From: Neocallimastix lanati (nom. inval.)
Lineage: Eukaryota; Neocallimastigomycota; Neocallimastigomycetes; Neocallimastigales; Neocallimastigaceae
Direction of reading: 5' to 3'
DNA length: 64,000 nt
NCBI GenBank assembly: GCA_016946835.1
Contig: JACVTC010000010.1
Span: forward strand, 1,771,001-1,835,000
A model generated the notes under the pieces. The model saw only the letters and a list, made by a program, of their open reading frames with translations. It was not told where the DNA came from and did not search any database. The position numbers and the translations under genes were made by a program. Shown piece after piece: positions 544-54,603 of the stretch (within the stretch, counting starts at the first letter, position 1; every line of letters begins with the position of its first letter).

Positions 544-4702
<4,159 letters not shown>

Positions 4703-11885: not shown

Positions 11886-14057
11886 TTTTTTTAGTAAAAA
11901 TAATAAAATTATTTTTATAATATATTATAATTTTTACATATATATATATATTTTTTTTTTTTTTATTTTACATATATATAAAATATATATATATGTAAAA
12001 TAAAAAAAATATATCTATCAATCTATTTATTTTTATTTATAATCATTTATATATAAAACACTTACTAATATAAGAGTATAAATATTGGTATATAATGAAT
12101 GTTTATCAAAATCGTACATACAGGTCATCATACGATTAAAGGTAATGGATCCAGTGGTCGTTAAGTTGAAGGTATCAAAGGATGATAACCCATAATAACC
12201 TAGGAAGGCAATCACCCAAGCAATGATAATGTAAATAATTAGCCTTCTATCGTGTAATTTTCTACCGTAGGAGACACTTGAAATATTGGTATAGATATAA
12301 TAGATACGGAAGATGATGGCGAAAAGTGGAATATAGACAAGATTGTTAATGAAGAAACTTAAGACACTGCTCATACGACATAAAAATCTTGTGGAGACTA
12401 AATTATAGGAGTATGGATATAAAATTCTCATAATAATACCAAAGATAGTGATGTTGGTTAACTGAGGGGACATGGCCTTTATGTATGGATGTTTTCGATT
12501 TCTATAGACCTTAACCATAATGACAATGAGGTGGATGGCTACTGCAATGGTGATTACATTTAAAATTAAAAACATGAGTAAAAGGGAATCAAATTCAATC
12601 TGCTTATCCCCACCAAAGGATCTGTTCCAAACCTCGATAACATTCAAAATTAACTTTTGAGCGACCTCATTCTTCGGATCACTTAACGTCTGTCTTATAG
12701 CCACCGGAGCGACCAATCTAGATTCTAAGAAACTGGCACTGTACATATCTTTCATCAGTACCGTTGTAATATGAATAGGATCTAATGCCTTAAGTAAATC
12801 ACAAATCTCCGCATGAGCTTGACAGTAGGAATTAGAATTTTCATTTGGATTTTTAAAATCAAACGTCGGAATACTACCAAATTGTAAGGCACGATACAGT
12901 TGCATTTCCTTCGAAGTCAGTTGAAGAGCCACTTGTTCAAGAATATTTTTAGGTTTTGTACTCTTACTGTTGATCACGATATATTTTTCATAGATGACAC
13001 TTTTATTTTCAGGTAAGGCATTAATGTGAATCTTTACATTTTGACTTGGATTTTGATTTTGATTTTGACTTGGATTTTGATTTTGATTTTGATTTTGATT
13101 TTGATTTTGATCTTGATCTTGACTTTGATTTAAAGTAGCATATAATGACGCCTTTCCTTTTAATAAAGGTTTTTCACCCTTAACAAAAGAATTGTAAGCC
13201 TCTTCCATCGTAGTCGATAAAGTTTTATTCATACTGTTTCCAGTAAGATGGTTGATATAGTTTCTTAAGGCATTAAACATTTCATCCTTATATAATAATT
13301 TATAGGATTCTAAGTCATCTTGTTTTGGGGTATCATATTGATAACGAGCAAATTCAGAATAGAGATTTAACAGCTCATCATTATCCATGAGACCAACGCT
13401 GACGATATTTTTAGCATTGGCATCACTGACATTTTGCAGATCTTTTGCTTTTAAGGCGAGGGAATCCTTCAAATCTGCTGCCGTATCATGATAATACAAT
13501 ACATCGAAATCGAATTCATAGGGAAGACCATATAAATTTTCGGTACCCAAGTGACCATCACTTAAAAGCGCTTTATCATGATGATTAATATTTTCCTCCG
13601 TTGGCTTAAGGCTTACTAAATAGTCAGTGAGTTTATGATAAGAAAATTCACCCTGTAAGATGGTATTATCAAGATAAGAATTATCACTGGATAAAAAGCG
13701 ATCATCCAACAGCATCAAATCAAAATTGGACTGTTTTAATTCTCTAAGAGTACAATTAAACTTGTTGGCATAGTCTCTATCCACGGAAAATGGTGAATTG
13801 AAACCTTTATATAACTTTTCAAGACTTGTACCATCCTCAGGAACTGGAGTACAATAAGAAAATTTTACCTCCACATCAGGAATATTATGAAGGGTGAAGT
13901 ATTGATTTGTGACTTTATTATAATTATCTAAAAATTGGTTTTCCCCAATATCCGGTTTATTAATTAATATATTAATTATATCTTTAGCATTGGTACTACC
14001 AGAAAAACATATTAAGAAAAATGGAATATTACTTATTAGAGTTTTAAATGAATACAT
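11048..14057 (-). CDS. Solute-binding-domain / class C seven-helix receptor, intact
   Basis: Two exons, 14057-12066 and 11779-11048, with one phase-0 intron, give about 907 residues. Residues 1-24 form a signal peptide. Residues ~25-485 resemble a bacterial extracellular solute-binding protein (type II periplasmic fold), with blocks such as VEVKFSYC and YGLPYEFDFDVLYY. Residues ~493-740 hold seven membrane helices of the class C GPCR type (GABA-B / metabotropic glutamate-like), with conserved HPYIKAMSP after helix 1 and KVHKLSKKYGD before helix 6. Residues ~745-907 are a Ser/Asn-rich cytoplasmic tail. A Gln-Asn run (residues ~311-340) made of a CAAAAT hexamer repeat lies in the binding domain. 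Inferred role: plasma-membrane sensor of an extracellular solute, possibly a plant sugar, with G-protein-type output. The ligand is unknown. Paralogues lie at 1-543 and 21274-24476 on the same strand. Confidence 0.88.
11780..12065 (-). other. Phase-0 intron in receptor gene (inside helix 5)
   Basis: The donor is GTAAGT directly after the codons for TLIL, and the acceptor is TTAG directly before TTTGTA. Splicing joins TLIL to FVVMMAMTIKVHK and restores helix 5. The intron is 286 bp and contains long poly-A and AT runs. The paralogue at 21274-24476 has an intron at the same codon boundary. Reading through it adds ten residues and then a stop. Confidence 0.88.
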
Positions 14058-14145
14058 TATATATATATATATATATGTTTTCTATTCTTTATAATAATAA
14101 AAATATGTTTAATTTATTTTAATAAAAATAAAAAATTAAATATTC

Positions 14146-22415: not shown

Positions 22416-24476
22416 ATATTAAAAAGATGTAAAATATATATATAAAAAAAAATAAAAATAAAAAAAAATAAAATAAAATAAAATATATAAAATAAATAAT
22501 AATAATAATAATATATATATATATATATATATATAAAAACTTACCAATATTAAGGTATAAATATTTGAATAATATGAATGTCTATCAAAATCGTACATAC
22601 AAGTCATGAGTCGATTAATCGAAATGGATCCTGCTGTGGTTAAATTGAATTCGTCAAATGAAGAGATTTCATAGTACACTCCAATGGAGATAATTAAAGC
22701 AATAATAATGTATAAAATTAATTTTCGATCATGCAAATGCCTACTGTAGGAGTAACTTGATGCATTAGTGAATATCAAATAGATACGGAGAATGATGGCA
22801 AAAAGTGGAAGATAGACAAGATTATTGACAAGAAAATTTAATACGGAGCTCATACGACATAAAAATCGAGTCGTCACTAAATTATAGGAATAGGGATAGA
22901 GTATTCTTACGATGATACCAAAGATCGTAAAATTGGTTAAGAAGGGGGACATCGCCTTAATGTACGGATGATTTCGGTTTCGATATACCATAACAAAGAT
23001 GACGACGAAATAGATGGCCACGGCAATGGTGAATACATTTAATACCATAAACATAATCATGGAGAAATCAAATTCCATTTCCTTATCCGTAAAGGATTGA
23101 TTCCATACATCGATGATGTTCATGAACGTCTTCCGGAGAATGTCATTATTGGGAAGAACTAAACTTTGCTTTAATGCCAACGGTAGGACTAATCGATCTT
23201 CAAGGAAACTGGCGCTAAATTTACTCTTTTTAAATACATTTCGAATACGTATGGGATCTAAGCTTCTTAATAAGTTACAGATTTCCATATTGGTTTGACA
23301 ATAGGCTTTCACCTCCTCATTTTGTATCTCAAAATTGAACGTGGGAATTGTGCCCAATTGGATGGCACGGTAGTGTTGCATTTCCTTAGAGGTAAGTTGA
23401 AGAGCCATTTTTTCGAGAAGTTCCTTTGATTTTAAACTATTCCTGTTCATCACGATATACTTCTCCGTGAGGGCACTTTTATTTTCGGGTAAGGCCCTCA
23501 CTTGAATATCATTATTTGGTTTTTCTTTTAAGGATTTGTAAAAGGAAGCCTTTCCTTTATACAATGGCTTTTTACCTTCCATAAAAGAATTAAAGGCCTC
23601 CTCTACGGAAGTGGATAAGGTCTTATCCAAATCAGTTCCGGTAATGCTTATTAAATAGTTTCTCAGGGACTGAACTAATTCCTTTTTTAAATACAATAAG
23701 TTATAGGTGCTGGGGTCACTTTCCTTTATGTCATTATATTGATAACGAATAAATTCACCAAAGAAATTTAATAATTCATCATTATCGCTAAAGCCAACAC
23801 TGACCACACCCGATACATTTTCATTCCCTACATTCTGTAAATCATTGATTTGGACGTTTAGGGCATCTTTTAAATTGGAAGCCATATTATGATAATATAA
23901 GATATCAAAATCTAATTCATATGGTAGTCCATATAAATTTTCGGTTTCAAAATAACCATCTTTTAAAATATTGGCATCATGAAATTTGATGGTCTCCTCT
24001 TCTTTCACATCAAAACTAATCAAATAGTCCGTAAGTCTATGGTATGAAAATTCAGTTTGTAATATGGTATTATCTATATAAGAGTTATCACTGAATAAAA
24101 CACGTTCATCTAATACCATTAAATCAAAATTGGATTGCTTTAATTCCCTAAGAGTACAATTGAAATAGGCAGCATATTCTTTATCGACTAAAAATGGTGA
24201 GTCGTAACTCTTATATAGGTCAACAAGACTTTTACCATCCTCAGGATCAATATTACAATATGAAAATTTTACTTCCACATCGGTAATATTATTGAGAATG
24301 AAGTATCGATTTGTAATATCATTATAATAAGATAGATATTGACCTTCCCCAATATTAGGTTTATTTATTAATATATTATAAAGTTCTCTAGCATTGACTT
24401 TATATGAATAAAATATTAAAAATATTAATAATAATAAAATATGATTGAATAATAGAGTTTGTTTTAAAATTAACAT
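21274..24476 (-). CDS. Solute-binding-domain / class C seven-helix receptor, intact
   Basis: Exons 24476-22545 and 22209-21274, joined by a phase-0 intron, give about 955 residues. The long hydrophobic N-terminus is a signal peptide or anchor. The solute-binding-protein-like domain follows, then seven membrane helices from about residue 475 with HPYIKAMSP after helix 1 and KVHKLSKKYGD before helix 6, then a long tail (~210 residues) rich in Ser, Asn, Thr and Tyr. It aligns along its length with the receptor at 11048-14057 but lacks that copy's Gln-Asn run. No frameshift or premature stop. The tail has many Ser/Thr positions that could be phosphorylated (inference). Role inferred as above: cell-surface solute sensing. 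Its tail is the most divergent part of the family, suggesting different internal coupling or desensitisation. Confidence 0.88.
22210..22544 (-). other. Phase-0 intron in receptor gene (inside helix 5)
   Basis: GTAAGT donor after the codons for TLIL and TTTTAG acceptor before TTTGTT. Same position as the intron at 11780-12065. It is 335 bp of poly-A and AT repeats. The intron stays open for about 41 codons, so an unspliced message would encode a receptor cut after helix 5 with a Tyr/Ile/Phe-rich end. Confidence 0.88.
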
Positions 24477-24498
24477 TTTGTTTTCATTCTTTCTATCT

Positions 24499-24530
<32 letters not shown>

Positions 24531-26333
24531 TTGTTTTTTGTTGCTGTTGTTCTTGTTTATTACTTTAAAAATTTAAATTAACTTATTTTAATAAAAACAT
24601 AATGCTTATATTATTTTTTTTTTTTATAAATATGAACATAATATTGATAAGAGATTTGCTTTTATTATTTTAATATTTAATATTTATTTTTCTCTTTTTC
24701 TTTTTTTTAGTTTCTATTCTTTTTTTTTTTTTTATTTTGTTTTATTTTGTTTTTCATTTAATATACACATTAAAAAGTTAAATATAACTTTTTAAAATAT
24801 TAATAATTTAATATACAAATATATATATGTTTTCTTTAAAAATAATATGAATCTTTATTAATATCAATAGATATCTTATTATATATATATCAAATTATCT
24901 TAATAAATCACTTTATTCTATTTTATTTCATTTATTTCATATCAAATCTACTTTAAAATCCTCACTCCCTCTATATATATAATAGTAAAAATAAAATAAA
25001 ATAAAATAAAAAAAAAAAAAATAGATGAAGAAAGCGAATAAAAATTTCTAAAACAATTTTGGTTTACTTAAATATTCAAATAATAATAAATAAACTTTCC
25101 ATTCTATTCGTAGTGCATAAATTAATTCTAAATTAATTTTTAAATTAAAAATAAAAATTTTTATTGGTAATGAAATTAAAATTAAAATTTAAATTAAAAT
25201 TAAAATGAGAATTAAAATTAAAAAAAATCTTTTATTGTTCACAATATTATATAGCTAAATATATATAAATATAAAGATAAATAAAGATAGATATATAAAT
25301 AATTATATATAATTATATGAATATAAATATATAAATATAAATATAATAAATATAAATATAAATATATAAATATAAATATATAAATATATATAAATATAAC
25401 TATATATAAATATATAAATATATATAGATATATATAGATATAAATATATATATAAATCAATATAATAAATATGTATATATATTTTTTCCTTTTTTTTTGT
25501 TTTTTTTTTGTTTTTTTTTTATTCTTTGCTAATAAAAATTAACCAAAAAAAAAAAAAAAAGCATTTTAATTTAATTTAATTTAAATTTAACCTTTTTTTT
25601 TTTTTTTTTGGTATTTGATATTTTTAATTATTTAATGGTTATAAATTAATATTATTAACTGTGTTTATAATATACATTATAATAATAATGAATAATAAGA
25701 AGAATAAAAATAATAAGAATAATAAATGGAATAATAAATAATAAATAATAAATAATAAATAATAAAAAGAGTATTTATTAATAAATAATAAAAAATAAAT
25801 AATTAAATAAATAATGGAATAATTAATAATTAAATAATTAATAATTAATAGTTGAATAATTAATAATTAATAATAAAGAGTTTTAATATTCATATAAAAT
25901 AAAATCTTTTTTATATGAATAAAACTAATAAATTATGAAGAGAAAAACAGAAAAGTCTTGTTATTTCTAACTCTTTTTATTTATTAAAATATACGATTAA
26001 AATTAAAATTAAATACTCTAAAATAAAAAAATAAAAATGAAAGTAATTATTCATGGTTATTATTTAATAAATAAAGGTCATCTTTTGATATAAATATTTT
26101 TAATATATTTCTTTTAATAATTATAATTATCTAAAAATAAAGTAAAATTAAATAAAATAAAATAATAAAAGAAACAAAACTAAATAAATATAAATCTATA
26201 TCTATCTATATATAAAAATGATTTTAATAATGATCAACCTTTTGACAAATTTTATTTCCATCTAATCAACTTTTTTTTTCTTTTAAACTCAATTATTGAA
26301 TAATAATAATAAAAAATTTTGAAGAAAATTAAA

Positions 26334-28500: not shown

Positions 28501-28762
28501 TTTTATTCGTGTCATATAACTTTTATTATTATTATTAAAGAACCATACATAGAAATTATTATATTACATGTTATTTTATAATATACATTTATATACATTA
28601 TACATAAATATCGTATGATTTATTCTACGCCACTAACACATACGCTAGCTCATATATTTATTGTTATTACATTATACATTTATACATTATATTTATTTAT
28701 TATATTATAAATATTTATTATATTTATATAATATTAAACCTATTTTAACTTTATTTCTAACA
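28501..28762 (-). repeat. Copia element 3' LTR
   Basis: About 262 bp, closely matching 36936-37197 and 56950-57205. On the minus strand it begins TGTTAGAAATAAAG. Its outer end (TTTTATTCGTGTC on the plus strand) has lost the terminal dinucleotide retained by the other LTRs (TGTGATTCGTGTC). It contains the family landmark CGCTAGCTCATATATTTA-like sequence near 28642. Confidence 0.9.
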
Positions 28763-28776: not shown

Positions 28777-30215
28777 TTAATATTCTTGTATCTTGTGAAG
28801 TAAAGAGTTTTTAAATTCTCTTGTTAAAGTACCATTAAGGTATTTTGTAAATCCGTCTACGAGATTATATATAGATTTTATATACTTTAGTTCTATTTTA
28901 TTTTCCTTTATTAATTCCCTTACCTTGTGATACTTTAAATCAATATGTCTTGATTTTGGGTTTATTGTTTCATTTTTGCTGTTGTAAATAGCTGTCTTGT
29001 TATCTATATTTATCGTAATACAATTTAATTTTATACCTAATTCGTTTAAGAAAGTTCTTAACCACATACATTTCAAGGCGCATTCATTTAAACTATAATA
29101 CTCACTTTCTGCAGTAGATAAAACGACGCAATGTTGTAATTTCGAATACCATGTAATTGGAGCTGAACCCACGAAAATGACAAAATCAGTAGTAGATCTT
29201 TTGGTTCCAGCATCACCTCCTAAGTCTGCATCTACGTACGTTCTAATTTTTAATATTTCTATTAAATTTAATACTGTAATATTTTTTTTTTCCTTTCAAA
29301 TACCTGAATATTTTAATTACATTCATCCAGTCTTCATAAGTGGGATTTTGGTTTTTTTTTCTTGATGCTTTATTAGTAGCGAACTTTATATCCAGTCTGA
29401 TTCCCATAGCTAAGTACAGTAGACAGCCAACTGCTTGCATATAGGTTGTTTTTTTCAAATTTTCTTTCTCTGAGTTTCTCATCTTCAGTATACATCATAT
29501 TTGAAATTTCATTGTATTTATCGATTTTAAACCTTTTCAAAATATCGTTCAAATATGACAATTGATGTACAATGTAACCATCTTCACACTTTATAAATTT
29601 AATTCCGATTATGAAATCTACTGTACCTAAATCACCTAAATCAAATTTTCTTTTAATTTTATATTTTACTATATCTATAGTTCTTTTTTTTTTTTTTTTT
29701 TTACCACTAATCAATATATCATCTACATCTATGGCTATAATACAAATAATTTTATTATACTTATCTTTTAGAATTTATACACATGGTTCACTTTTGAGTC
29801 TTTTGAAGCCTATTTCTGTGAGCACATTATCTAATTTGTTGTTCCACATACGGCCAGATTGTTTTAAACCGTAAATAGTCTTAATCTAGTTTCCAGAAAC
29901 CCTTGCCGTAGTCTACACATCCTTCAGGAATCTTCATGTAGAGTTCTTCTTCAAGGTCAGCATTTAAATACGCTGCCTTAATATCGATTTGATAAATTTC
30001 AAAACCGTAAAACAAATGGCAATTAAGATGATTATTCTTAAGGGAGTCTTGTTTGAGAGTAGGAGAAAAGGTTTCTAAAAAATCAATGCCATATATTTGA
30101 GAAAAAAAAACCACGAGCGACTAACCTTGCTTTATATCGTGTGATTATACCTACAATTATTTCTTTTTAAGATTAAAAATCCATCTTGCTGATATAACGT
30201 GCTTTTCTTTGGGAA
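28777..30215 (-). pseudogene. Copia reverse transcriptase and RNase H, decayed
   Basis: Read on the minus strand from about 30215. RARWIFNLKK- and YKARLVARG-like blocks start the reverse transcriptase, then DFLETFSPT, QIDIKAAYLNADLEEELYM, the catalytic block IDVDDILISG (near 29725, a variant of YVDD), and DLGDLGTVDFIIGI. RNase H follows (29172-28777) with STAESEYYSL and NPKSRHIDLKYHKVREL. The frame breaks several times, including at a run of about 19 T on the plus strand (29683-29701) next to the catalytic motif. RNase H is the best-preserved part (131 codons open). Not functional. Confidence 0.88.
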
Positions 30216-33200
30216 CCTTTTTGACAAAAGAGTGTATGGAATATCCCACTGAGAATGGATAAAGTAATCACAATAAGCCAATATAATTGGAGAATCTAAG
30301 ATACCAGAAGAGTGTATACAATTATTACTTGCTGAGTTGTACAAGTAATAAGTTTCAGTGTTGATAGTTGGAGTAAGTGTAGGTACTTTCAGAACCGTGT
30401 ATACCACACCATTCATTATTTTCAATACCCCATTGACCAAACTCATCGGTAGTAACAACAGCAGCGTTTGGATCAAGAGCAACATGGATAACCTAAAGCT
30501 TCAAAGAAGCAAACAGTGACTGGAGTTGGATTATGATCCCAGTTGAAGAATTTTTCATCATCATTTTTTAAGTACATGCGTTTAAGTTCATTTTTATTTC
30601 ATTGTTGTACATATCATTCACATCTAAGAAACCAATGCATTTATTGGGGGAACCAATTAATTCGAAGAAACCATATCATCAGTGTGTTCTAATTTGGCTT
30701 TGCTCATCACATTTACCCAATTCCAGTGAGCCTGTATCAATATTAGAAACATGCAAACAATAATTAGGTTGAGCCATAGAGTAGAAGTAACCTTTACAAG
30801 AAGGTAATACCATCCACTTGGAATATTAAATATCATCACAAGGTTTAACTGTAATTAAATTGTTTAGCTCTTGTAGTGCCTATAAACACTTATTGGTAAA
30901 AGCATGATAGAACCAAATAGACGGTATGACCACTCTTGATTGTAGAGGTGGCTTTACTAATAGTAGAAACTGTAGAACTTATAGTTGTAGTAGTTGTATT
31001 AACAGTTGTAGTTGGTTCGCTGGATTTTTGGATTGGATGTCGAAAGAGATATAAGGCACCAATCATCATTTTCAACTCCCCAAGTACCTGTTTCATCCGT
31101 GTATGCAACATCAGTAATTTTTGGAGAACAACATGGATAGTCATCTACTGGACAATCAGAATCAGATGGTGGAAAAATTTTTGGAAGATCATTATTTCAT
31201 TATTTCTATTAGGATTATAAGGATCGTTTTCTTTATGAATAATAATGCCATTATCTATATCTTGTATTTCCCATTGAAAACTCTCATCATTTTTATCGTA
31301 TGATTCTTCAAAATTGAGTGTTTTACTACTTAAACCATTATATTTTAAGTTCCTACTGTTTTTAACACATAAATATTTATCTTCAATAAATTCAAAATGC
31401 ATAATAACGATCTTTAATATTCATAATATTTTCACACATTTCTAAGCCTGGGGTCTGTGCATTGGCAGCATATAAACACTTTCCATTTTTATCAGATGTA
31501 ATCTTTTTTTTTTTGTTGTTATATTCATCGACATCTGTAACGTGCCATAAACTATGATTCGAAGTGGTACATTCTCCTAAATCAATTAAATTACCATCAC
31601 TATTATTAATTAAAACACATTGCTTAGTTTTAATATTACGGATTCTGCATGTAATAACTCTGTTCATTTCACCAATACCACATAATTCTCCATCTTCTTC
31701 TTCCCATTTTCCATATGAATCTTCTTTGACGACTTTTGGGTTAACCGACGAGCAACAATGATATCCTAGAACTTCAAATGAGCATCGTTCATATCCAATG
31801 CCACACCATTCTCCATTCTCCTTTGCCCAATTACCAAATTACCATATTTATCAACTTTTTCTACTTTAGCATTTTGATTAAAACAACATTTATAACCGCG
31901 TTTTAATATAATTAGTTGAACAAGTTAAATGATCATATCTTGAGGATTGCGAAACTACTGGGTTGAAACTGATAACCCCATCTATGCATTTGTTAACTCG
32001 TGAATAAACCTTTCCGTCCTTAATAGTAAATTCTTTATACCTTACTTCTTTCGCATTCCCGTACGTATAAACCATCATTGGAATAATTTAAATATTTACC
32101 ATCATATGATGAAATAATATGATAGAATCCATTATTATCACTGGAAATAACTCGCCATTGATTCAATTTATAATCAACGCATTTGTAATTGGTTTTTATA
32201 ACTTCTTCTTGAAAACCTTATTTATTAATTATCGTTCTAGGTTGAAGGCATGAAATATTATAACCCTTTTTGGAATCTCGTTTAGATGATAACGTATTCA
32301 ACAATAATTTATAATTATTATTTGTATAAATACTTTGTTTATCAATACTTCAATACTAAAACTGCTTGAATTATAGTTGGATTCATAAATTTTACGTATA
32401 ATATCAGAACTAGGGTAATCTAAAATTATCCATTCATTATAAAGTGGTTTTTCTTTTTCTTCTTCAATATAACTAATTAATTTATCATTTACATAATCTA
32501 CCATTTCTTTTATAGAACTATCAAACCAATCCATAACATTTAAAAATATTGTCCATTCTTTGCCATGTTCATAAAATTAATAGTACGAATGTTTGCATTA
32601 TTTGTATCAAAAAATTTAGTAGCCATAAGATTATTCTTATCATAATAATTTATCATTATACATATCTCCAACGTTACCTTTCAAAGTATCATATACTATT
32701 TCCCATTTATCATCTTCTTCTAAGTTATAATCATCTTTCCCACGAATATTGGGATAATTATTTTGTAGATGTGGTACACAAATATTGCCATCACTTTTTC
32801 CACCCTTATTACTATATTCATCACATTTCCCCATATCTGGAATTCCCTCATATATATACCTGTTGGTTTACTATTATCTTTTTTTACTTGTAAGAATAAC
32901 TATCGTACCATTTACAGAACCAAGAGTAGTGATTTTGTCACCTCTATAAAAAAAAAGTCACTAATAGTTTTATTAGTATTTTTAAATTTTAATAGTATTC
33001 AAAACTGTTTTCTTTTCAATACTTTCAAAAAGTTCTTTTTCCTCCATGAGTTCAATTCTTTCTATTTTTAAATGCATAATTAACTGTTTCTGATGGATGT
33101 TCAATTAAAAAATCAATAGTATCATTTATTACATCATCAAACTTAAGACGGTCTACAGCAGCACCTTCTTTCAAACAATATATAGTAACTCCGACAATAT

Positions 33201-33955
33201 CACCATGAGTAATGTATATTTCATGAATTAATATTTCGATCAACATCAGAGAGTCTTATATCTAAATATCTAATTCCATTTAAATAATTGTTCTTTAATA
33301 CTTGATTGTTGAGTTTCAGCTAAAATAATTATAATCTTCTATATGGAATGTTCCAGTGTCATGAGTACCAGGGATATTAATTTGATTAAGACGGAGGCTA
33401 GGATCAATATTACTCATCCAATTAGCATCTTTATTGAAATAATCTGTATAACTGTACCAACTCCACTCAATTAAAAAACACGTTTGTTAGTTGCATCAAT
33501 ATCATAATAACGAGTATTATTCCATTTAATATTATCCGCTAATTGAGTATCACCATGACTTGCAAAGATAGAAATGACTGGATTCTATATTAACCTTTCC
33601 TTTATTATAGCAATTATCAGGATTATCATAATTGTTACTATCTAAATATATATCAGCCATAGCTATATCTCTGGAATAGCATTGCTTTAAAATTTTATAT
33701 TTAGAAAAAAAAAAAAAAACCGATTCAGTAATTCCTAAACAAATATACATTTCCGTACATTCAAAAGAAGTTATATAAACAGTTTGTTTACCATTATTTA
33801 TTTCAAGATATTTACCTCGATCTATTGAGCAAGTAATACTTTTTATTAAAGTAAGTAAAATAGTTATATTTAATAACTTCATCTTTAATTTTTATTTATT
33901 TTTTATATATATATAAATTATACATAAAATCATTTTAAAAGAAAGTAAATATTCT
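30216..33955 (-). pseudogene. Decayed secreted PI-PLC / ricin-lectin / dockerin gene inside the copia element
   Basis: The frame starts at an ATG at 33882 with a clear signal peptide (MKLLNITILLTLIKSITCS). A phosphatidylinositol-specific phospholipase C X-like domain follows: QINIPGTHDTGT (~33390), the DDVINDTIDFLIEHPSETV region (~33140-33090), and NEWIILDYPSSDIIRKIY (~32435-32380). Next are ricin-type beta-trefoil pieces with QxW-like motifs (NQWRV, FQWEI, SQWDI). At least four CBM10-type dockerins with GY-CC and W-G-EN-WCG patterns lie near 31840, 31720, 31120 and 30440. A Thr/Ser linker is at about 31020-30930. Multiple frameshifts and stops kill it. No GT-AG introns are needed in the parts I could read. 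As a protein it would be a secreted lipid-cleaving or binding protein attachable to the cellulosome. The 3' boundary with the reverse transcriptase is uncertain (30180-30290). Confidence 0.8.
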
Positions 33956-36811
33956 CAATGAAACTCGAAACAATTATTTAAATTGTTTAATTGGCCATTT
34001 TGTAAATTGTGATTATTTTGATAATTGTAATGTTTTTTAATTATTGTTATAAGTTGGTAAGGCGGAGTAATTAAAATTATTTGGGTATTTTAAATTATAT
34101 TGATACTGATACGGATAATTTTGTATAAAATTATTTGGTGGAATATTAATAAGGTGAATAAATCAAATGATTTAATTTATTATCGTAATTGCTTAAAAAT
34201 TCCTTATTGTTGTTGTCGTCCATATTTGAAATAGTTATACTATTGTTATTTGAATTATCCTTATTAATTGTACTTAACATTATTGTTCATATCATTGTTC
34301 ATATTATTGTCATTGAATTCCACAGATACTTCATTATTACTTCCCCTAATTTCATTAATAAGGAGTTAAATTTATAGTATCAGGAATGGAGGAAGGGGCA
34401 GAACAATTACCAGGGGTATCTTCAAAGAAAACAACCAAACGAGAAATAACAACCTTATTATTTGTTATATCATATATACGGTTAAGCAGTGGGGTTTTGA
34501 GTCATAACCTATAAAGATTCCAGGAAAAGAGGTATTTTATAATTTCTTCCTGAACCGTTTGGGAACAAGGAAAAATACCTGATAACAGAAGACTTTAAAT
34601 CTGTTGTAATCAACTTTTTTTATTATATAAAAGTTCAAAAGGAACTTTATTACCTATTCCTCTATGAGGTATCCTATTGTGAATATAATTCGCAGTATTT
34701 ATCTCGCATCTTCCCAGAAAACTTGACTTAAACGCGTATCTTCCATCATAGCTCTAGAATTTGGAATTAACGAACCGTTTAAACGTTCAATTCGACCGTT
34801 TTGCCGTGTTTCATAAGGAACAGAAAAATCATGAGAAATACCATTTTTAATACTCCTTCTATTGGTAAATTCAGTACCATTATCCGTACGTAAATATTTT
34901 ATGGATTTATTAAATATATTTTTAATATTGTTATACCAAGAGAGAAAGGCATCAAACACTTGGTCTTTAAACTTAATAAAGAGAACCCACCCAAACCTAG
35001 TATAATCATCACGGATAGAGACGAAATATTTATTGCTATAAAGGGAGGTATTTATTAATAGAAACTGTATCCATGTGAACCAATTCGAAAGGCTCACTGG
35101 CTCTACTATCAGAAGATTTGTGAGGAAAATTCTTTAGTTTTGTTTTGGCACATATTTTACATTGACATTTAATATCAATTTTACTTAGGGTATTACGGAG
35201 AGGACCTAAAACCGTAGTGAGCTAAACGCCTGTGCCAAATATACCAAGACTATCATTATCATTAGAAGACAGACTATTGCATATTATAAAAGTTAGAATC
35301 AATGGCTCTCTTAGAAGTCCAGATAACATAAGTTTTAGAATAATTTGAAGGTAGTTGTGCATATTCGATTATTTTTACTGTTATATATAGATGCGCAATT
35401 TGTATTATCCTTTTTATAAAACACTGTTTTATAATTTTGATCTGATAAACCGTCGACAGAAATTAAGTTTTTTTATTGAAAGCAGGTATATATAGAACGT
35501 GCTTGAGATTGATTATATTACCATTTTATATTATCCTTTATATATGCCTATACCTTTTGATTTTACGTATTCCCCATTTTGCAAAATAGATTCTCTTATG
35601 ATGTTTAAGCATGTTTGTCAAGATATCAGGATTACCAGTCCTATAATACGTAGTTCCAGAATCTAAAGTCCATGAACGTATCTCATCATCGACGTGTTTT
35701 TGATTATTAATTGAACTATTATAAAAACTTAGAGGCTTTATTGGTAGAATACTTGTTGACGCGTCATTAGATTGTGTTTCATAAGAGTCATTATCGTCTT
35801 TAAAGAAGTCTTCTCTATGCTTGTCCTCTTCTTCATTATCTTTAACCTCATTGTTTTGACATTTGATCTTGCCTCCCCCCTTGTTTTCTTCCCTTTTGAT
35901 AATTTTTATTATTTTTTTTCTATTATTATAATTTTTCCTTTTCTTGTAATCATTATTTGATTTTTTTATTCCAACACTCCCTTTTAAAATGACCTTTCTT
36001 ACCACAGTACCAACATTCTATGTCCTTTCTAAAGCTATTAAAATTGTTATTACCTTTTGTTCTTGTTTGGTTGTAATTTACCTGTACTCCTGAGGAGTTC
36101 GACACTGGGCTTGTATCGGTTTTATTATTCTTATTACCCTATATTTTATCCAGTTTACGTATTTCCTTTAATTTATAGTGAGATTGTATTAGATTTTCTA
36201 TAGCCCCATTCAAATCCTTTTGAAATTGTAACATATTAGCATCCTTTGCTAATTCTATTGGCATGGCATTATATAAATAATTAAATTTATCATCTTCAGA
36301 TGGTTTTGCTTTTAATTTTTCTAATTCCTTGAATTTTTTGTTTAAAGTTAGAAATAAATGAAGTTATATGTTTTTCTCCTTCCGGATCAAATTTTGTATA
36401 ATTTAGATAATCCTTGATTTCATTTCTTCTTTCTTCTTCAGTTCCAACACAGGTTTCTATTATTTTCTGATAGATTTCGTATGACGTTAATGACTCGAAA
36501 TCTATATCCTCAATTAGATTTTATGCTGATCCTTCTTATTAAAATATTTCTAACTTTGGCACCAGCTCATATAACTTCTTTCTTGGTACTAACAGCGAAA
36601 TATGTATCTGTTTGACCAAGCACAATAATTGGCTTTGCTCTTTCATCTTCGGATAGAGTAGATCAGTCCTTTTTTTATTAATTTTTCGTTTAGGATATAT
36701 CCAAGTAAATTTTCCTGCAGAAGCAACGCGAAAATTTCTTTCTTCTATATCTTGAAACTTGAGCGACCTTCAAGTAAATCCCTTGTGCTTAAATTTTCTT
36801 TATTAGACATC
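33956..36811 (-). pseudogene. Copia gag, protease, integrase and linker, decayed
   Basis: Minus strand from the ATG at 36811, opening MSNKENLSTRDLLEGR as in the fragment at 57331. An early TAG (TGG in that fragment) and frameshifts follow. A CCHC knuckle CWYCGKKGHFKREC is at 35974-36015. Protease is marked by WTLDSGTTYYRTG (~35665). Integrase (35097-34699) keeps the catalytic acidic pattern in RDDYTRFGW, YLRTDNGTEF and RQNGRIERLNG. An Asn/Tyr/Pro-rich linker runs on to about 33955 (for example PYQYQYNLKYPNNFNY), where the host-gene sequence begins. Non-functional. Confidence 0.87.
35974..36015 (-). other. CCHC zinc knuckle of copia gag
   Basis: Fourteen codons reading CWYCGKKGHFKREC, a perfect CX2CX4HX4C nucleocapsid knuckle that would bind the element's RNA. 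Confidence 0.9.
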
Positions 36812-36935: not shown

Positions 36936-37197
36936 TGTGATTCGTGTCGTATAACTTTTATTATTATTATTATTATTATTAAAGAAATATATATAGAAAT
37001 TATTATATTACATGTTATATTATAATATACATTTATATACATAATATATAAATATTATTTGTTTTATTCTACGCCACTAGCACATATGCTAGCTCATATA
37101 TTTATGTTATTACATTATACATTTATACATTATATTTATTTATTATATTATTAATATTTATTATATTTATATAATATTAAACTTATTTTTTCTAACA
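36936..37197 (-). repeat. Copia element 5' LTR
   Basis: About 262 bp in direct orientation with 28501-28762. On the minus strand it runs from TGTTAGAAA to CGAATCACA, giving the canonical TG...CA ends. It would contain the element's promoter and poly-A signals, but none can be picked out in such A/T-rich sequence. Confidence 0.9.
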
Positions 37198-42967: not shown

Positions 42968-45116
42968 CATAATTATTAGTAACTATTAATATTGCTATCA
43001 TTTTTTTTATGTACATATAAAACAATTTAATTTATACAATCTATTGAAAGAAAATATTTTTTATTAAGAAAATTGTTAAATATTTATAAATATTAGAACA
43101 AAAAATTTATTTATATTAATATATATTTCTATATAATATACTAATAATTTTTTCTTTTTTTCTTTTTACTATTTATGTTTTAATAAAAAAAAAAAAAGTT
43201 GGGTTGTCTCTGATTCTATTAAAAAGAATTGGATTTCAAGAAAATTTGATATTAAAGAAGATGATGTTAGGACTGTTTATAAATGTGATAAACTTAGATT
43301 TGATGATGGTGTAAAAAAAGTCAATTGTGTCAATATTAATGATGATTATACTGATAATATGGAACCATTATATGTAAGTTATATATATAAAATTTATATA
43401 TTATTATTCATATATACTTTTATAAAAATAATATATATATCTATAAAGATAATAAATATAATTTTTTTAATTAATTTTATCTATTATTCCAATAAATTTT
43501 TTTTTTTTTTTCTTTTTTGTTTGTTTGTTTGTTTGTTTGTTTGTTTTTGTTTTGTTTTGTTTTGTAACAATAGGACTTTGTTAATAAAGTTAATGCTGCT
43601 AAAACTAGAGCTGATTTAGAAGAATTCATGGAAGTTGAAAACTTCCTTAAATAGTAAGTAAAAAAAAATTTTTTTTTTTTATTGCATATATTAATAAATA
43701 ATTATTATTGGTTTATTATTATTATTATTATTTTTTTCTTATTATTAGAATGTATTGTAAATAAAAATTGATGAGTAACAATTAAAAAAAAAAAAATTTT
43801 TTTTTTCTATTTTTTAAATTAAATTAAAATAAATTAATTTCTTTAGTATGGCTTGGGAATGGTTAATGGGTTCTTGGGATCACTTCCTTAGTTCTTTTAG
43901 TCATAATATGTGTTGGTTCCTTCAACCAAATGGTAAATGGGCTTACATTCCATTTGATCATGATATTGAATTAGGAGAAGAAGTTCATGCTAAATTCTTC
44001 CCATACATGGATGACATCTATGACCCAAATGATGGTGATAAAGATTATGACTACACTCATATTAGTTTTGCTGATTTTGAACATCATCATCCAATTATTA
44101 AGATTCTTGTTCATGATGATGATACTGAATTCCGTAAATGCCTTGGTGATATCATTAGTAAGGCATTCAATCCTGAAATTTTATTCCCTCATATTGATGA
44201 AGTAAAGAACTATATTGCTCCTTATGTTAAGAAAGAAAAAGAATTAAATGTTGGAAAATTTAATAAAAAGGGTTTGGATGTTTATTTCTCTTATGAACAT
44301 TTCCTTTTAAATACTGAATACACTTTTGTATACAATCTTGGTTGTTGGTTATGGTATAAGGGTTATGGTCTTAAAGATTGGATTCTTGGTCGTTATGAAT
44401 ATGCTGCCAGATACTATGGTATCAACTATAATTCTACTAACCCAGAAGAAAGACATAAACTTATTGAACCAAGACCAGAACCTGTCATTTTACCATATAT
44501 CACAGATATCACTTACCTCGATCCAAAAACAAATGAAACTTTCACTGAAAGACCAGAAGGACCAGGATATGCTTATGTTCAATTTGGTGATAATCGTTTA
44601 GAATACACTTTACTTGAAAATTATGATGATAATCGTGTCCCTACCATTGGTGTAAATGAATACCTTAGAAGCATAGAAAATGGAAAGGAAAATGGAAAGG
44701 AAAATGGAAAGGAAAATGAAAAGGAAAATGAAACAACTACTGAAATTGCTACTGAAACAGCTACTGAAACAGCTACTGAAACCGAAACTTCAATTGAAAC
44801 TGGAAAAGAAAATGAGGAAGCTGAAGCTCCATCTACTGACAAAAATTGTTGGGCTAATGCTTTTGGTTACGATTGTTGTGACAGGGGATGTCAAACTAAA
44901 GTTGTTGTTGTCGACGATGATGGTAATTGGGGAGCTCAAAATCACGAATGGTGTGGTATTCCAAAGGATTGTAAATATTCTGAAGAATGTCCAGGATCTA
45001 AGTTAGGTTATTCCTGTTGTGAAGGCTGTGTCGTCTATGAGGTTGATGACATTGGCTCCTGGGGTTATGAAAATGATCAATGGTGTAGCACTAAAACTTC
45101 TTGTCTTAAAAATTAA
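41623..45116 (+). CDS. Secreted CotH-kinase-like protein with two fungal dockerins, intact
   Basis: Six exons (41623-41662, 41810-42008, 42224-42478, 43199-43373, 43574-43653, 43847-45116), all joins in phase with GT-AG signals, give about 672 residues. Residues 1-19 are a signal peptide (MKLLNILSTVSLFGALSVKA). A CotH domain follows (~20-520), recognised by KPGFNIKIKN, HGTKNFRLRSDQREPSMMRS, MGFWVVSDSIKKNW, SHNMCWFLQPNGKWAYIPFD and the acidic FDHDIELGEE (~286-295), a plausible active-site stretch. CotH proteins are atypical protein kinases in Bacillus spore coats and fungal surfaces. A repeated NGKE/TETA linker (~525-582) leads to two CBM10-type dockerins (~584-625 and ~631-670) with GYDCC, WGAQNHEWCG, GYSCC and WGYENDQWC. 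Such dockerins dock enzymes onto anaerobic-fungal cellulosomes. CotH-dockerin proteins are a known class in these fungi. The substrate here is unknown. Confidence 0.93.
42479..43198 (+). other. Long intron 3 of the CotH gene
   Basis: 720 bp, against 147, 215, 200 and 193 bp for the other four introns. GTAAGT donor; acceptor is a bare poly-A-AG. It contains a duplicated unit ACATATAAAACAATTTAATT then CAATCTATT and GAAAGAAAATA (about 42869-42912 and 43015-43055) and a poly-A run of about 34, so it has grown by repeat expansion. Confidence 0.85.
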
Positions 45117-52367: not shown

Positions 52368-54603
52368 TTAAGGAATAGGAGTTTGTAAATAATGATAATT
52401 TATTAGGGTTACTTTTAATGTTTTTAATGATTCTGACATATCCTTTGAAAATTTTCCGCTCAAAGTACTGTTAGTATTATTGGCACTAGAAGAATAATCC
52501 GTTTTAGCATTACTCGATATATAACCTCTATTAAGAGTAGTATCTTTAATATTAGAATATCTATTATTAATGATTATATCACGCATCTTTTTATTGTCCA
52601 AGTCTTCCTTACTACTAATAGACATAAATATTACTCGTATGAAAAATATATATATATGATTCATAAGGACACAACTGAAATTGATAATGATGTGTAATAA
52701 ATTATACAGAATATAATTATTTATATTCAAATTATTAAATACGATTTTTAATATTTGATTAATTCCATCAATGATTAAAACCACTGTAAAATGTCTCACA
52801 TCAAAAAAAGTTTCATTCAAGTTCCATTCCAGGAATATCAAGAAACAAATAATGAAATATATAATAATATTATAAGATATCTGAGTGTAGGATACTATCT
52901 TTCCTACAGTATTGTTATAATCACAAATATAGAAATTTTTAAGTTCTTTATAAAAATTAATTTCTTTTATTTTATAGGCCTTCGTCGCTATTATTAATAT
53001 TGATAATAAAAATTGTACAGAAAATAAGAGGGTAAAAAAGATGTATCTATTCTTCTCAATCCATTTTGAATATTTATTAATTTTTGGAAAGTTTACTGCC
53101 AATTTGAAGAGTAGAGGAATAAAAACTAAAGAATCCCCAATTTCCATGCAAATATGACGAAAAGCGCACTTCTTCGAGGTAGGAGTATTGTAGTATTCCA
53201 TAATTGAGGCTAAGATAAATAGAGATCCTATTAAATATAACAACCAAAAATCGGTACTCATGAATTTGAAATATCTTTTATTATATTTAGGAGTGAAAAG
53301 TATTAATGATGAAAAGAACACACAACATAATAAGATGATTACAATTCCCAATATTATTAGTCCACAGAGAGATGTTATCTGTATAGAATAATGACTATTA
53401 ATATCACTAATTTTATTTTGTAATTCTTTTGTTGTTATTGATCCATCTAAATATTTATAAAAATATTTTAAGACCCTATCTGAAAAATGTTCATAATCTT
53501 TCATTGTTGAACTTGGTCTCAGATAGAATTGAATTTCTTTCATCATGTCACAATTAATATATCGGCATGACTCTTCATCGTCGTATAGTGTGCTAAGTGC
53601 TGTAATTAATCCTAACTGTTTTACAATTACTTCTTTTTGAAATCTTTCAGTAAAAAGATACTGAATAACTTTAATTGATGCTTCTATCTTTTCTTTTTCA
53701 ATATTTTTATTAATTCCTATATTAAATCCTCCAAGAATAGATCCATTAATTCCCATTTTTTTTCCAGGTAATACAGATATGGAATAATTAGGTAAAACTA
53801 ATGAACTATAAAAATTAGAAAATAATATATTTCCTTTAGTCATTTCAACAACGTTAAATACTTCATTAGATCTATATACTTCATCTTCATAATATATAAG
53901 TATGTATTATATTTTATTTTAATTTTCAAAAGAAATAAAAAAAAAAGTATATATATATATATTATTATTATTTATTATATATTATTATTATTATTATTAT
54001 TTTTTTTTTAATAAAATATTAATTTTTTTTCTTCTTTTACCAGATGAAATTGTTTCCCTTATTTTCATTAGTTCTTCTAATGCATCATAAGTTTCTTGAC
54101 TAGTAAAATCAGGTATATCTGAATCTTTGTCCTTTCTAAAGGAGTAAATAATTTGATAGAGGGAACATAATGTATTTTCATTATCTTTAGAAAATATTTA
54201 AAAGATTTCATGATGTTATCATTATTTAATAAAAATTTATATTATGTTTATATATAAAATATAAAATATTTAATATTGAATTATACATATTATATTATAT
54301 TATATTATATTATATTATATTATATTATATTATATTATATTATATTATATTATATTATATTATATTATATTATATTATATATATAGTTAAAAATATTACT
54401 TGGAAAAAGTCCATTATATCCAATTAAAGTAGAATTTTTATGCTTTTCTTTTTCTTTTTTCATTATATATTCTGCTGTTTCAATTAAATCATCCCATGTT
54501 TTTGGTATTTCTTTATTATATTGCATTAAATAATCTTTATTTGATTGTAATACTGATATAATCATAAATAGAGGCTAAAATATATATTATTAAAATAATA
54601 ATG

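What the first reader, a model, noticed from the sequence alone, without database searches (positions are those of the whole stretch)
30216..33955. A PI-PLC / lectin / dockerin gene sits inside a copia element, between integrase and reverse transcriptase
The copia linker reads to about 33955, then after a ~73-bp leader a signal-peptide ATG (33882) starts a secreted PI-PLC-like protein with ricin-type and dockerin modules on the same strand. About 3.7 kb later the reverse transcriptase resumes. No introns are evident in the captured piece, while host genes here have one to five. This fits retro-capture of a host mRNA (transduction) better than random DNA insertion, though both are possible. It would be a route for spreading dockerin modules.
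Basis: partly seen in the sequence, partly recalled or inferred. Interest (0 to 1): 0.85.

Follow-up and report, generated by a model that had tools for sequence, protein, structure and literature searches.

The report
Dead dockerin gene inside a retrotransposon
In a gut-fungus genome, one old and broken copia retrotransposon carries a broken copy of a host secreted-protein gene in its middle; this is a known kind of event, here old enough to leave a related fusion in a second Neocallimastix, with no sign that the gene still works or spreads.

Summary
The finding is real but needs correcting. One degenerate copia element (minus strand, LTRs 37197-36936 and 28762-28501) has a 3.74-kb piece of a PI-PLC/ricin/CBM10 (fungal dockerin) gene between integrase and reverse transcriptase, in the same orientation. 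Three of three other copies held across both junctions lack it and instead have 666-673 bp of Asn-rich spacer, which the window copy has lost; a fourth is empty at the right junction. LTRs and both halves behave as one element, so two fragments flanking a resident gene is unlikely. The gene is dead: split by frameshifts, cut off before its last ~70 codons, and without codon-position bias against its nearest copies. Missing introns are no evidence for mRNA capture, because the compared paralogs have none either. A Neocallimastix 'constans' protein joins the same pseudogene lineage to the spacer missing here, so capture is older than that split and the present left edge may not be original. Template switching during reverse transcription and DNA-level insertion are about equally likely. 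The right junction was found once in this genome, and dead pieces of the same gene also lie outside this copia family: no demonstrated route for spreading dockerins.

The parts
36936..37197 (-). 5' LTR, 262 bp, TGTTA...CACA
35956..36138 (-). gag piece with zinc knuckle (zf-CCHC)
   Evidence: Pfam PF00098
34702..35133 (-). integrase core piece (rve, below Pfam cut-off; the related protein P0029 is above it)
33972..34300 (-). copia spacer up to the left junction at 33972; the next ~666 bp of spacer are missing
30230..33971 (-). inserted, frameshifted, 3'-truncated PI-PLC/ricin/CBM10 pseudogene; starts 89 bp before the ATG
33553..33882 (-). N-terminal open piece with signal-peptide-like start; best own-genome relative 44% identical (C15)
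32147..33394 (-). PI-PLC part; nearest copy is a dead fragment at C748, 60 substitutions in 1219 columns, without codon-position bias
31395..31838 (-). CBM_10 (fungal dockerin) and weak ricin-type lectin match
31002..31196 (-). further CBM_10 (dockerin) piece
30229..30236 (-). right junction; ATACAC stands in both parents at the break, two bases out of register
29884..30120 (-). copia reverse transcriptase piece (RVT_2)
28780..29295 (-). copia C-terminal open piece (RNase H by recall; no Pfam hit)
28501..28762 (-). 3' LTR, 262 bp, 236 of 253 ungapped columns identical to the 5' LTR

Best explanation
This is a single old copia element that took up most of a host PI-PLC/ricin/dockerin gene, in sense orientation, at its integrase-reverse transcriptase spacer. 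Element and gene then decayed without selection. Shown: sister copies with an empty site; replacement of ~670 bp of spacer; LTRs and halves that behave as one element; a truncated, frameshifted gene; a related fusion in a second Neocallimastix. Inferred: the gene entered by joining at little or no homology. The route I put slightly ahead is template switching from copia RNA to the gene's mRNA during reverse transcription: the copying enzyme left copia near ATACAC, copied the mRNA towards its 5' end, and returned to copia RNA in the spacer (about 0.45, against about 0.40 for a DNA-level insertion). After capture the gene was a passenger; the element's polyprotein was interrupted, so it could not have moved without help (inference). 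The confidence below is for the anatomy and history; the route alone stands at 0.45.
For: Empty site: C741, C2:1.98 Mb and C746 carry the continuous spacer across both junctions; C12 carries spacer positions 39-662 of 666 directly before reverse transcriptase. One element: the two window LTRs group with the partial C201 LTR at support 1.000, apart from the other copies' LTRs, and both carry a ~33-bp segment that the LTRs of C2:1.98 Mb, C746, C741 and C12 lack; the left half is 93.8-94.3% and the right half 93.2-93.7% identical to the sisters. Sense orientation and a start 89 bp before the ATG fit an mRNA 5' end. No constraint: substitutions by codon position 24/23/13 (C748), 7/8/9 (C379), 18/23/17 (C5), 30/36/37 (C32), against 49/33/89 for C144 and 70/49/132 for C37. 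Old: N. 'constans' P0007 is identical over 63 of 63 residues to an out-of-frame reading of window 30854-30660 and is fused to copia spacer.
Against: The route is not shown. The compared gene family members have no introns to lose. There is no poly(A) mark, though an internal switch would leave none. P0007's spacer lies upstream of the same pseudogene, so the left edge at 33972 may be a later deletion and the fit to an mRNA 5' end a coincidence. In strict register the right break shares one base only. Divergence of the insert from its nearest copies (4.9% and 4.8%) is slightly below LTR-LTR divergence (6.7%), where capture during reverse transcription predicts at least as much; the difference is not significant (p = 0.28 for C748, 0.18 for C379 with both its blocks). 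The target-site duplication is not clear in the window copy (TCTTT against ACCTT, 3 of 5). The right-half tree puts the window beside C741 and C746 (0.840, very short branch) rather than outside the sisters; the left-half tree groups it with C201 (0.995), which has no right half to compare.
Confidence: 0.72

Rival explanations
1. DNA-level insertion: after the copia had integrated, a piece of a dockerin gene (perhaps already a dead copy) was joined into the spacer by break repair or other illegitimate recombination, with loss of spacer.
For: Dead pieces of the same PI-PLC region sit at C748 and C32 with no trace of this copia in the 6.4 kb held at each, so such pieces do disperse in other ways. 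Insert divergence from its nearest copies is not above LTR divergence. Loss of sequence at the site is usual for break repair (established knowledge).
Against: Sense orientation and a left edge just before the gene's ATG are coincidences under this route; a 3.7-kb filler is large.
Confidence: 0.4
2. Two unrelated copia fragments flank an ordinary resident gene.
For: Target-site duplication of the window element is not clear. The 3' LTR is closer to the C201 LTR (96.0% of 175 columns) than to its own 5' LTR (93.3% of 253).
Against: Both LTRs fall in one subfamily clade (support 1.000); the order of win5, win3 and C201 is unresolved (0.442); both halves are in the same orientation, miss only 666-673 bp between them and are about equally distant from the sisters. 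The gene is cut inside its coding sequence exactly where copia resumes.
Confidence: 0.05
3. Assembly artefact joining a copia and a dockerin gene.
For: The genome is AT-rich and repeat-rich, and the right junction was found once.
Against: The separately assembled N. 'constans' genome annotates a protein joining copia spacer of the same family to the same pseudogene lineage with shared indels.
Confidence: 0.03

Closest known systems
Maize Bs1 LTR retroelement with captured host gene pieces (ATPase, xylan endohydrolase, beta-1,3-glucanase)
   Same: Host gene segments inside an LTR element, not full-length (passages of review PMC13317346).
   Different: Here one gene, nearly whole, lies between integrase and reverse transcriptase of an otherwise recognisable copia, in a fungus, and is a pseudogene; the same passages say that Bs1 formed a new chimeric gene.
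Captured genes in LTR retrotransposons of rice and sorghum (genome surveys)
   Same: Host sequence within LTR elements; the review gives 1343 transduced sequences in sorghum (passage).
   Different: Many of those are reported as expressed or under selection; here the changes show no codon-position bias.
Abnormal template switching in LTR elements (Veju, BARE-2)
   Same: Foreign sequence brought into an element during reverse transcription (passage).
   Different: Those examples involve another element or an unknown DNA, not a host coding gene; the route is unproven here.

Membership tests
Ty1/copia LTR retrotransposon | gag zinc knuckle, integrase before RVT_2 reverse transcriptase, in that order | tested here: met
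   (rve in the window piece is below the Pfam cut-off); related protein P0029 has rve and SH3_retrovirus above it, RVT_2 following
Ty1/copia LTR retrotransposon | two LTRs, TG...CA, 5-bp target-site duplication | tested here: inconclusive
   LTRs 262 bp each, 236 of 253 identical, the 3' end reads AAAA instead of CACA; window flanks match 3 of 5; sister copy C2:1.98 Mb has CGTAC on both sides
PI-PLC / ricin / CBM10 (fungal dockerin) gene family | CBM_10 and ricin-type domains with PI-PLC N-terminal part | tested here: met
   CBM_10 above cut-off and ricin below cut-off in window pieces; window pieces align to relatives with PF00388
Functional gene of that family | one open frame, purifying selection | tested here: not met
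   many frameshifts; no codon-position bias against nearest copies
Retro-captured (mRNA-derived) host gene in an LTR element | parent introns missing in the captured copy | tested here: inconclusive
   no introns in the compared paralogs, so nothing could be lost; parent itself not found
Retro-captured (mRNA-derived) host gene in an LTR element | several integrated copies with the same junctions (would show it moved; not required of a first capture) | tested here: not met
   right junction found once in own genome; whole insert matches only itself among scored candidates

The most novel reading that the evidence does not exclude
The copia-dockerin chimera was once a mobile, transducing element: the gene was captured from mRNA in an ancestor of these Neocallimastix species, and the chimeric RNA, helped by intact copia proteins, moved and recombined with ordinary copia RNA. 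The N. 'constans' form, with spacer restored and the gene entered further in at a CTAT shared by both, would be a recombinant daughter rather than a decayed ortholog.
Probability: 0.17. Interest if true: 0.7.

Novelty: new member of a known kind. Interest (0 to 1): 0.38.

Why it matters
Anaerobic fungi carry hundreds of dockerin proteins (543 in N. constans, table passage in PMC12341934), and how that gene set grew and reshuffled is open. A documented capture of such a gene by a retrotransposon, traceable in two species, makes one route testable by sequence. This case shows capture but not spread: the captured copy is dead, and only one was found.

Tried and rejected
Intron comparison as proof of mRNA capture: rejected; within aligned blocks of eight paralog loci no stretch above 6 nt is missing from the insert. 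Between blocks, L071 and L007 are 90 and 68 nt longer than the insert, but these stretches lie mostly inside open frames of 342 and 355 aa in those paralogs. A single parent gene: not found; the N-terminal 350 bp has no close DNA match and at most 44% protein identity, the PI-PLC part is nearest to C748, the C-terminal part to C379. Leader comparison with the C15 and C45 genes: inconclusive, by eye. Looking for a P0007 relative in viral contigs: none. Looking for the right copia half in N. constans by protein search with window 28780-29295: 57 hits, none whose longest contig has the length of P0007's contig; the tool shows only the longest contig and limits protein length, so this is weak. Fragments C748 and C32: no copia of this family nearby; eight flank ORFs from these two loci scanned against Pfam gave no transposon domain. 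Whole-element dating: only rough, from 253 LTR columns and a protein-level comparison with P0007 (294 of 307 residues, about 1.9% DNA by my own conversion). Paper searches on anaerobic fungi with retrotransposon or transposable element and with phospholipase and dockerin listed 0, 3, 2 and 0 papers, none about such a capture by title and abstract start; no whole paper was read.

Full report
What is there. The window is G000:C2:1771001-1835000 of a 199.0-Mb, 762-contig genome. Protein matches name Neocallimastix and Piromyces. The N. lanati protein P0003 matches here in three blocks at 97, 99 and 98%, not 100%, and the N. 'constans' protein P0007 at 97% at best. Published assemblies differ in size: N. 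constans 187.1 Mb in 558 scaffolds (passage of PMC12341934), N. lanati 200.97 Mb in 970 contigs (passage of PMC8561657). So the genome is a Neocallimastix close to, but apparently not identical with, either; this is inference. On the minus strand lie a 262-bp LTR, gag with zinc knuckle, integrase, a 3.74-kb foreign stretch, reverse transcriptase, a C-terminal piece and a 262-bp LTR.

Junctions and empty sites. Searches of the own genome with the integrase side (41 matches, 40 of 300 candidates scored) and the reverse-transcriptase side (41 matches, 40 of 688 scored) gave three close full copies (C741, C2:1.98 Mb, C746) and partial ones at C12, C201 and C755. In the three full copies the two halves are joined by 666, 668 and 673 bp of Asn-rich spacer. 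C12 has spacer positions 39-662 of 666 directly before reverse transcriptase, but its integrase side was not seen. C201 has lost the region; C755 was not held across the site. So three of three copies held across both junctions are empty, and a fourth is empty at the right junction. The metagenome protein P0029 also reads through the empty site. In the window, copia identity ends at 33972 and resumes at 30236-30229. At the right break both parents have ATACAC; in strict register only one base is shared (read by eye). With up to 3 mismatches the right junction occurs once in the genome; the only other match is the empty C12 site.

One element or two. The window LTRs are 93.3% identical over 253 ungapped columns, and both carry a ~33-bp segment missing from the LTRs of C2:1.98 Mb, C746, C741 and C12. 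With the partial C201 LTR they form a clade of support 1.000. The left half is 93.8-94.3% and the right half 93.2-93.7% identical to the sisters. Against this, the duplication around the window element is only 3 of 5, the 3' LTR is somewhat closer to C201 than to its partner (96.0% against 93.3%, order unresolved at 0.442), and the right-half tree puts the window beside C741 and C746 (0.840, very short branch) while the left-half tree groups it with C201 (0.995), which has no right half. I conclude one element.

The captured gene. Window pieces carry CBM_10 and a weak ricin-type match; relatives add PI-PLC (PF00388). Searches show a large family in the genome. Paralog L008 continues about 70 codons past the right break, so the captured gene is 3'-truncated. 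It is split into many short frames. The nearest copies are a PI-PLC fragment at C748 (60 substitutions in 1219 columns) and the C-terminal part of a shortened gene at C379 (26 in 546). In both, the changes show no codon-position bias (24/23/13, p = 0.16; 7/8/9, p = 0.86), nor against C5 (18/23/17) or C32 (30/36/37), whereas comparison with C144 or C37 shows third-position excess (49/33/89; 70/49/132). The insert thus shows no constraint since it parted from its nearest copies.

Introns. Within aligned blocks of eight paralog loci the longest stretch present in a paralog but absent from the insert is 6 nt. At C190 (952-aa frame) and C41 (783-aa frame) the N-terminal match and the dockerin match lie in one open frame (same reading phase by their coordinates). 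Paralogs without introns leave no test.

A second species. P0007, N. 'constans' U3516DRAFT_853824, 455 aa, begins with copia spacer, from the part missing in the window copy. It then passes at 'DPI-ILIHHMM' into the same pseudogene lineage: 63 of 63 residues identical to an out-of-frame reading of 30854-30660, where none of the other 24 proteins matched, and shared indels. In own-genome search its best C-terminal match is the window itself, 97% against 75% for the next. By eye I find no splice signal at the join in the related sequences held here, so I read it as a DNA join at a CTAT that both parents have; the N. constans DNA itself was not available. Hence capture predates the split. Either the ancestor had more spacer and the window's left edge is a later deletion, or the constans form was made by recombination with an ordinary copia. 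Either way the edge 89 bp before the ATG cannot be taken with confidence as the original capture point.

Age. LTR-LTR 6.7% (95% interval 4.0-10.5), insert against C748 4.9% (3.8-6.3), against the C379 C-terminal part 4.8% (3.1-6.9). The order element, then capture is suggested but not significant (p = 0.28, 0.18). Divergence from P0007 is smaller (294 of 307 residues identical in the blocks).

Mechanism. Template switching during reverse transcription (about 0.45) fits sense orientation and a start near the gene's 5' end. DNA-level insertion (about 0.40) fits the dispersed dead fragments at C748 and C32, which show no trace of this copia in the stretches held, and the divergence order. The remainder covers mixed routes, two fragments and artefact.

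Verdict. Host-gene capture by LTR elements is known in plants (Bs1, rice, sorghum; passages of PMC13317346). This is a new member of that kind in an early-diverging fungus, with a second-species trace, but with no function and no spread shown. My paper searches listed no report of it in anaerobic fungi; they cover only the held open library.

Noticed in passing
window 43833-45113 (+): Open frame with CotH kinase and two CBM_10 (dockerin) stretches, about 6.6 kb from the copia element's 5' LTR; an ordinary-looking dockerin gene.
   Followed up: partly
window 12036-14081, 22422-24572, 52371-53906 (-): Three open frames with class C seven-transmembrane receptor domain (7tm_3) in one 64-kb window.
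   Followed up: no
L005 (C37) 502-2979 and 4061-4459: An 826-aa PI-PLC/dockerin frame stops short and is followed by a copia reverse transcriptase on the opposite strand with no DNA match to the window's copia.
   Followed up: partly
L006 (C406) and L007 (C79): Two equally scoring copies of a truncated family member; the L007 frame ends ...HAFHPPQEQWEY, as does metagenome protein P0002.
   Followed up: no
L002 (C144) 174-258 and 1501-3118: The gene breaks at the spot matching window 30311-30314 and continues on the opposite strand, an apparent inversion inside the gene.
   Followed up: no
C141:15281 and C141:45958: Two family members with equal match scores and 1151-aa frames about 31 kb apart on one contig, a probable recent duplication.
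   Followed up: no
protein P0028: ENA metagenome protein joining a dockerin-family N-terminus to an aminotransferase-like protein; probably a mis-assembly.
   Followed up: no
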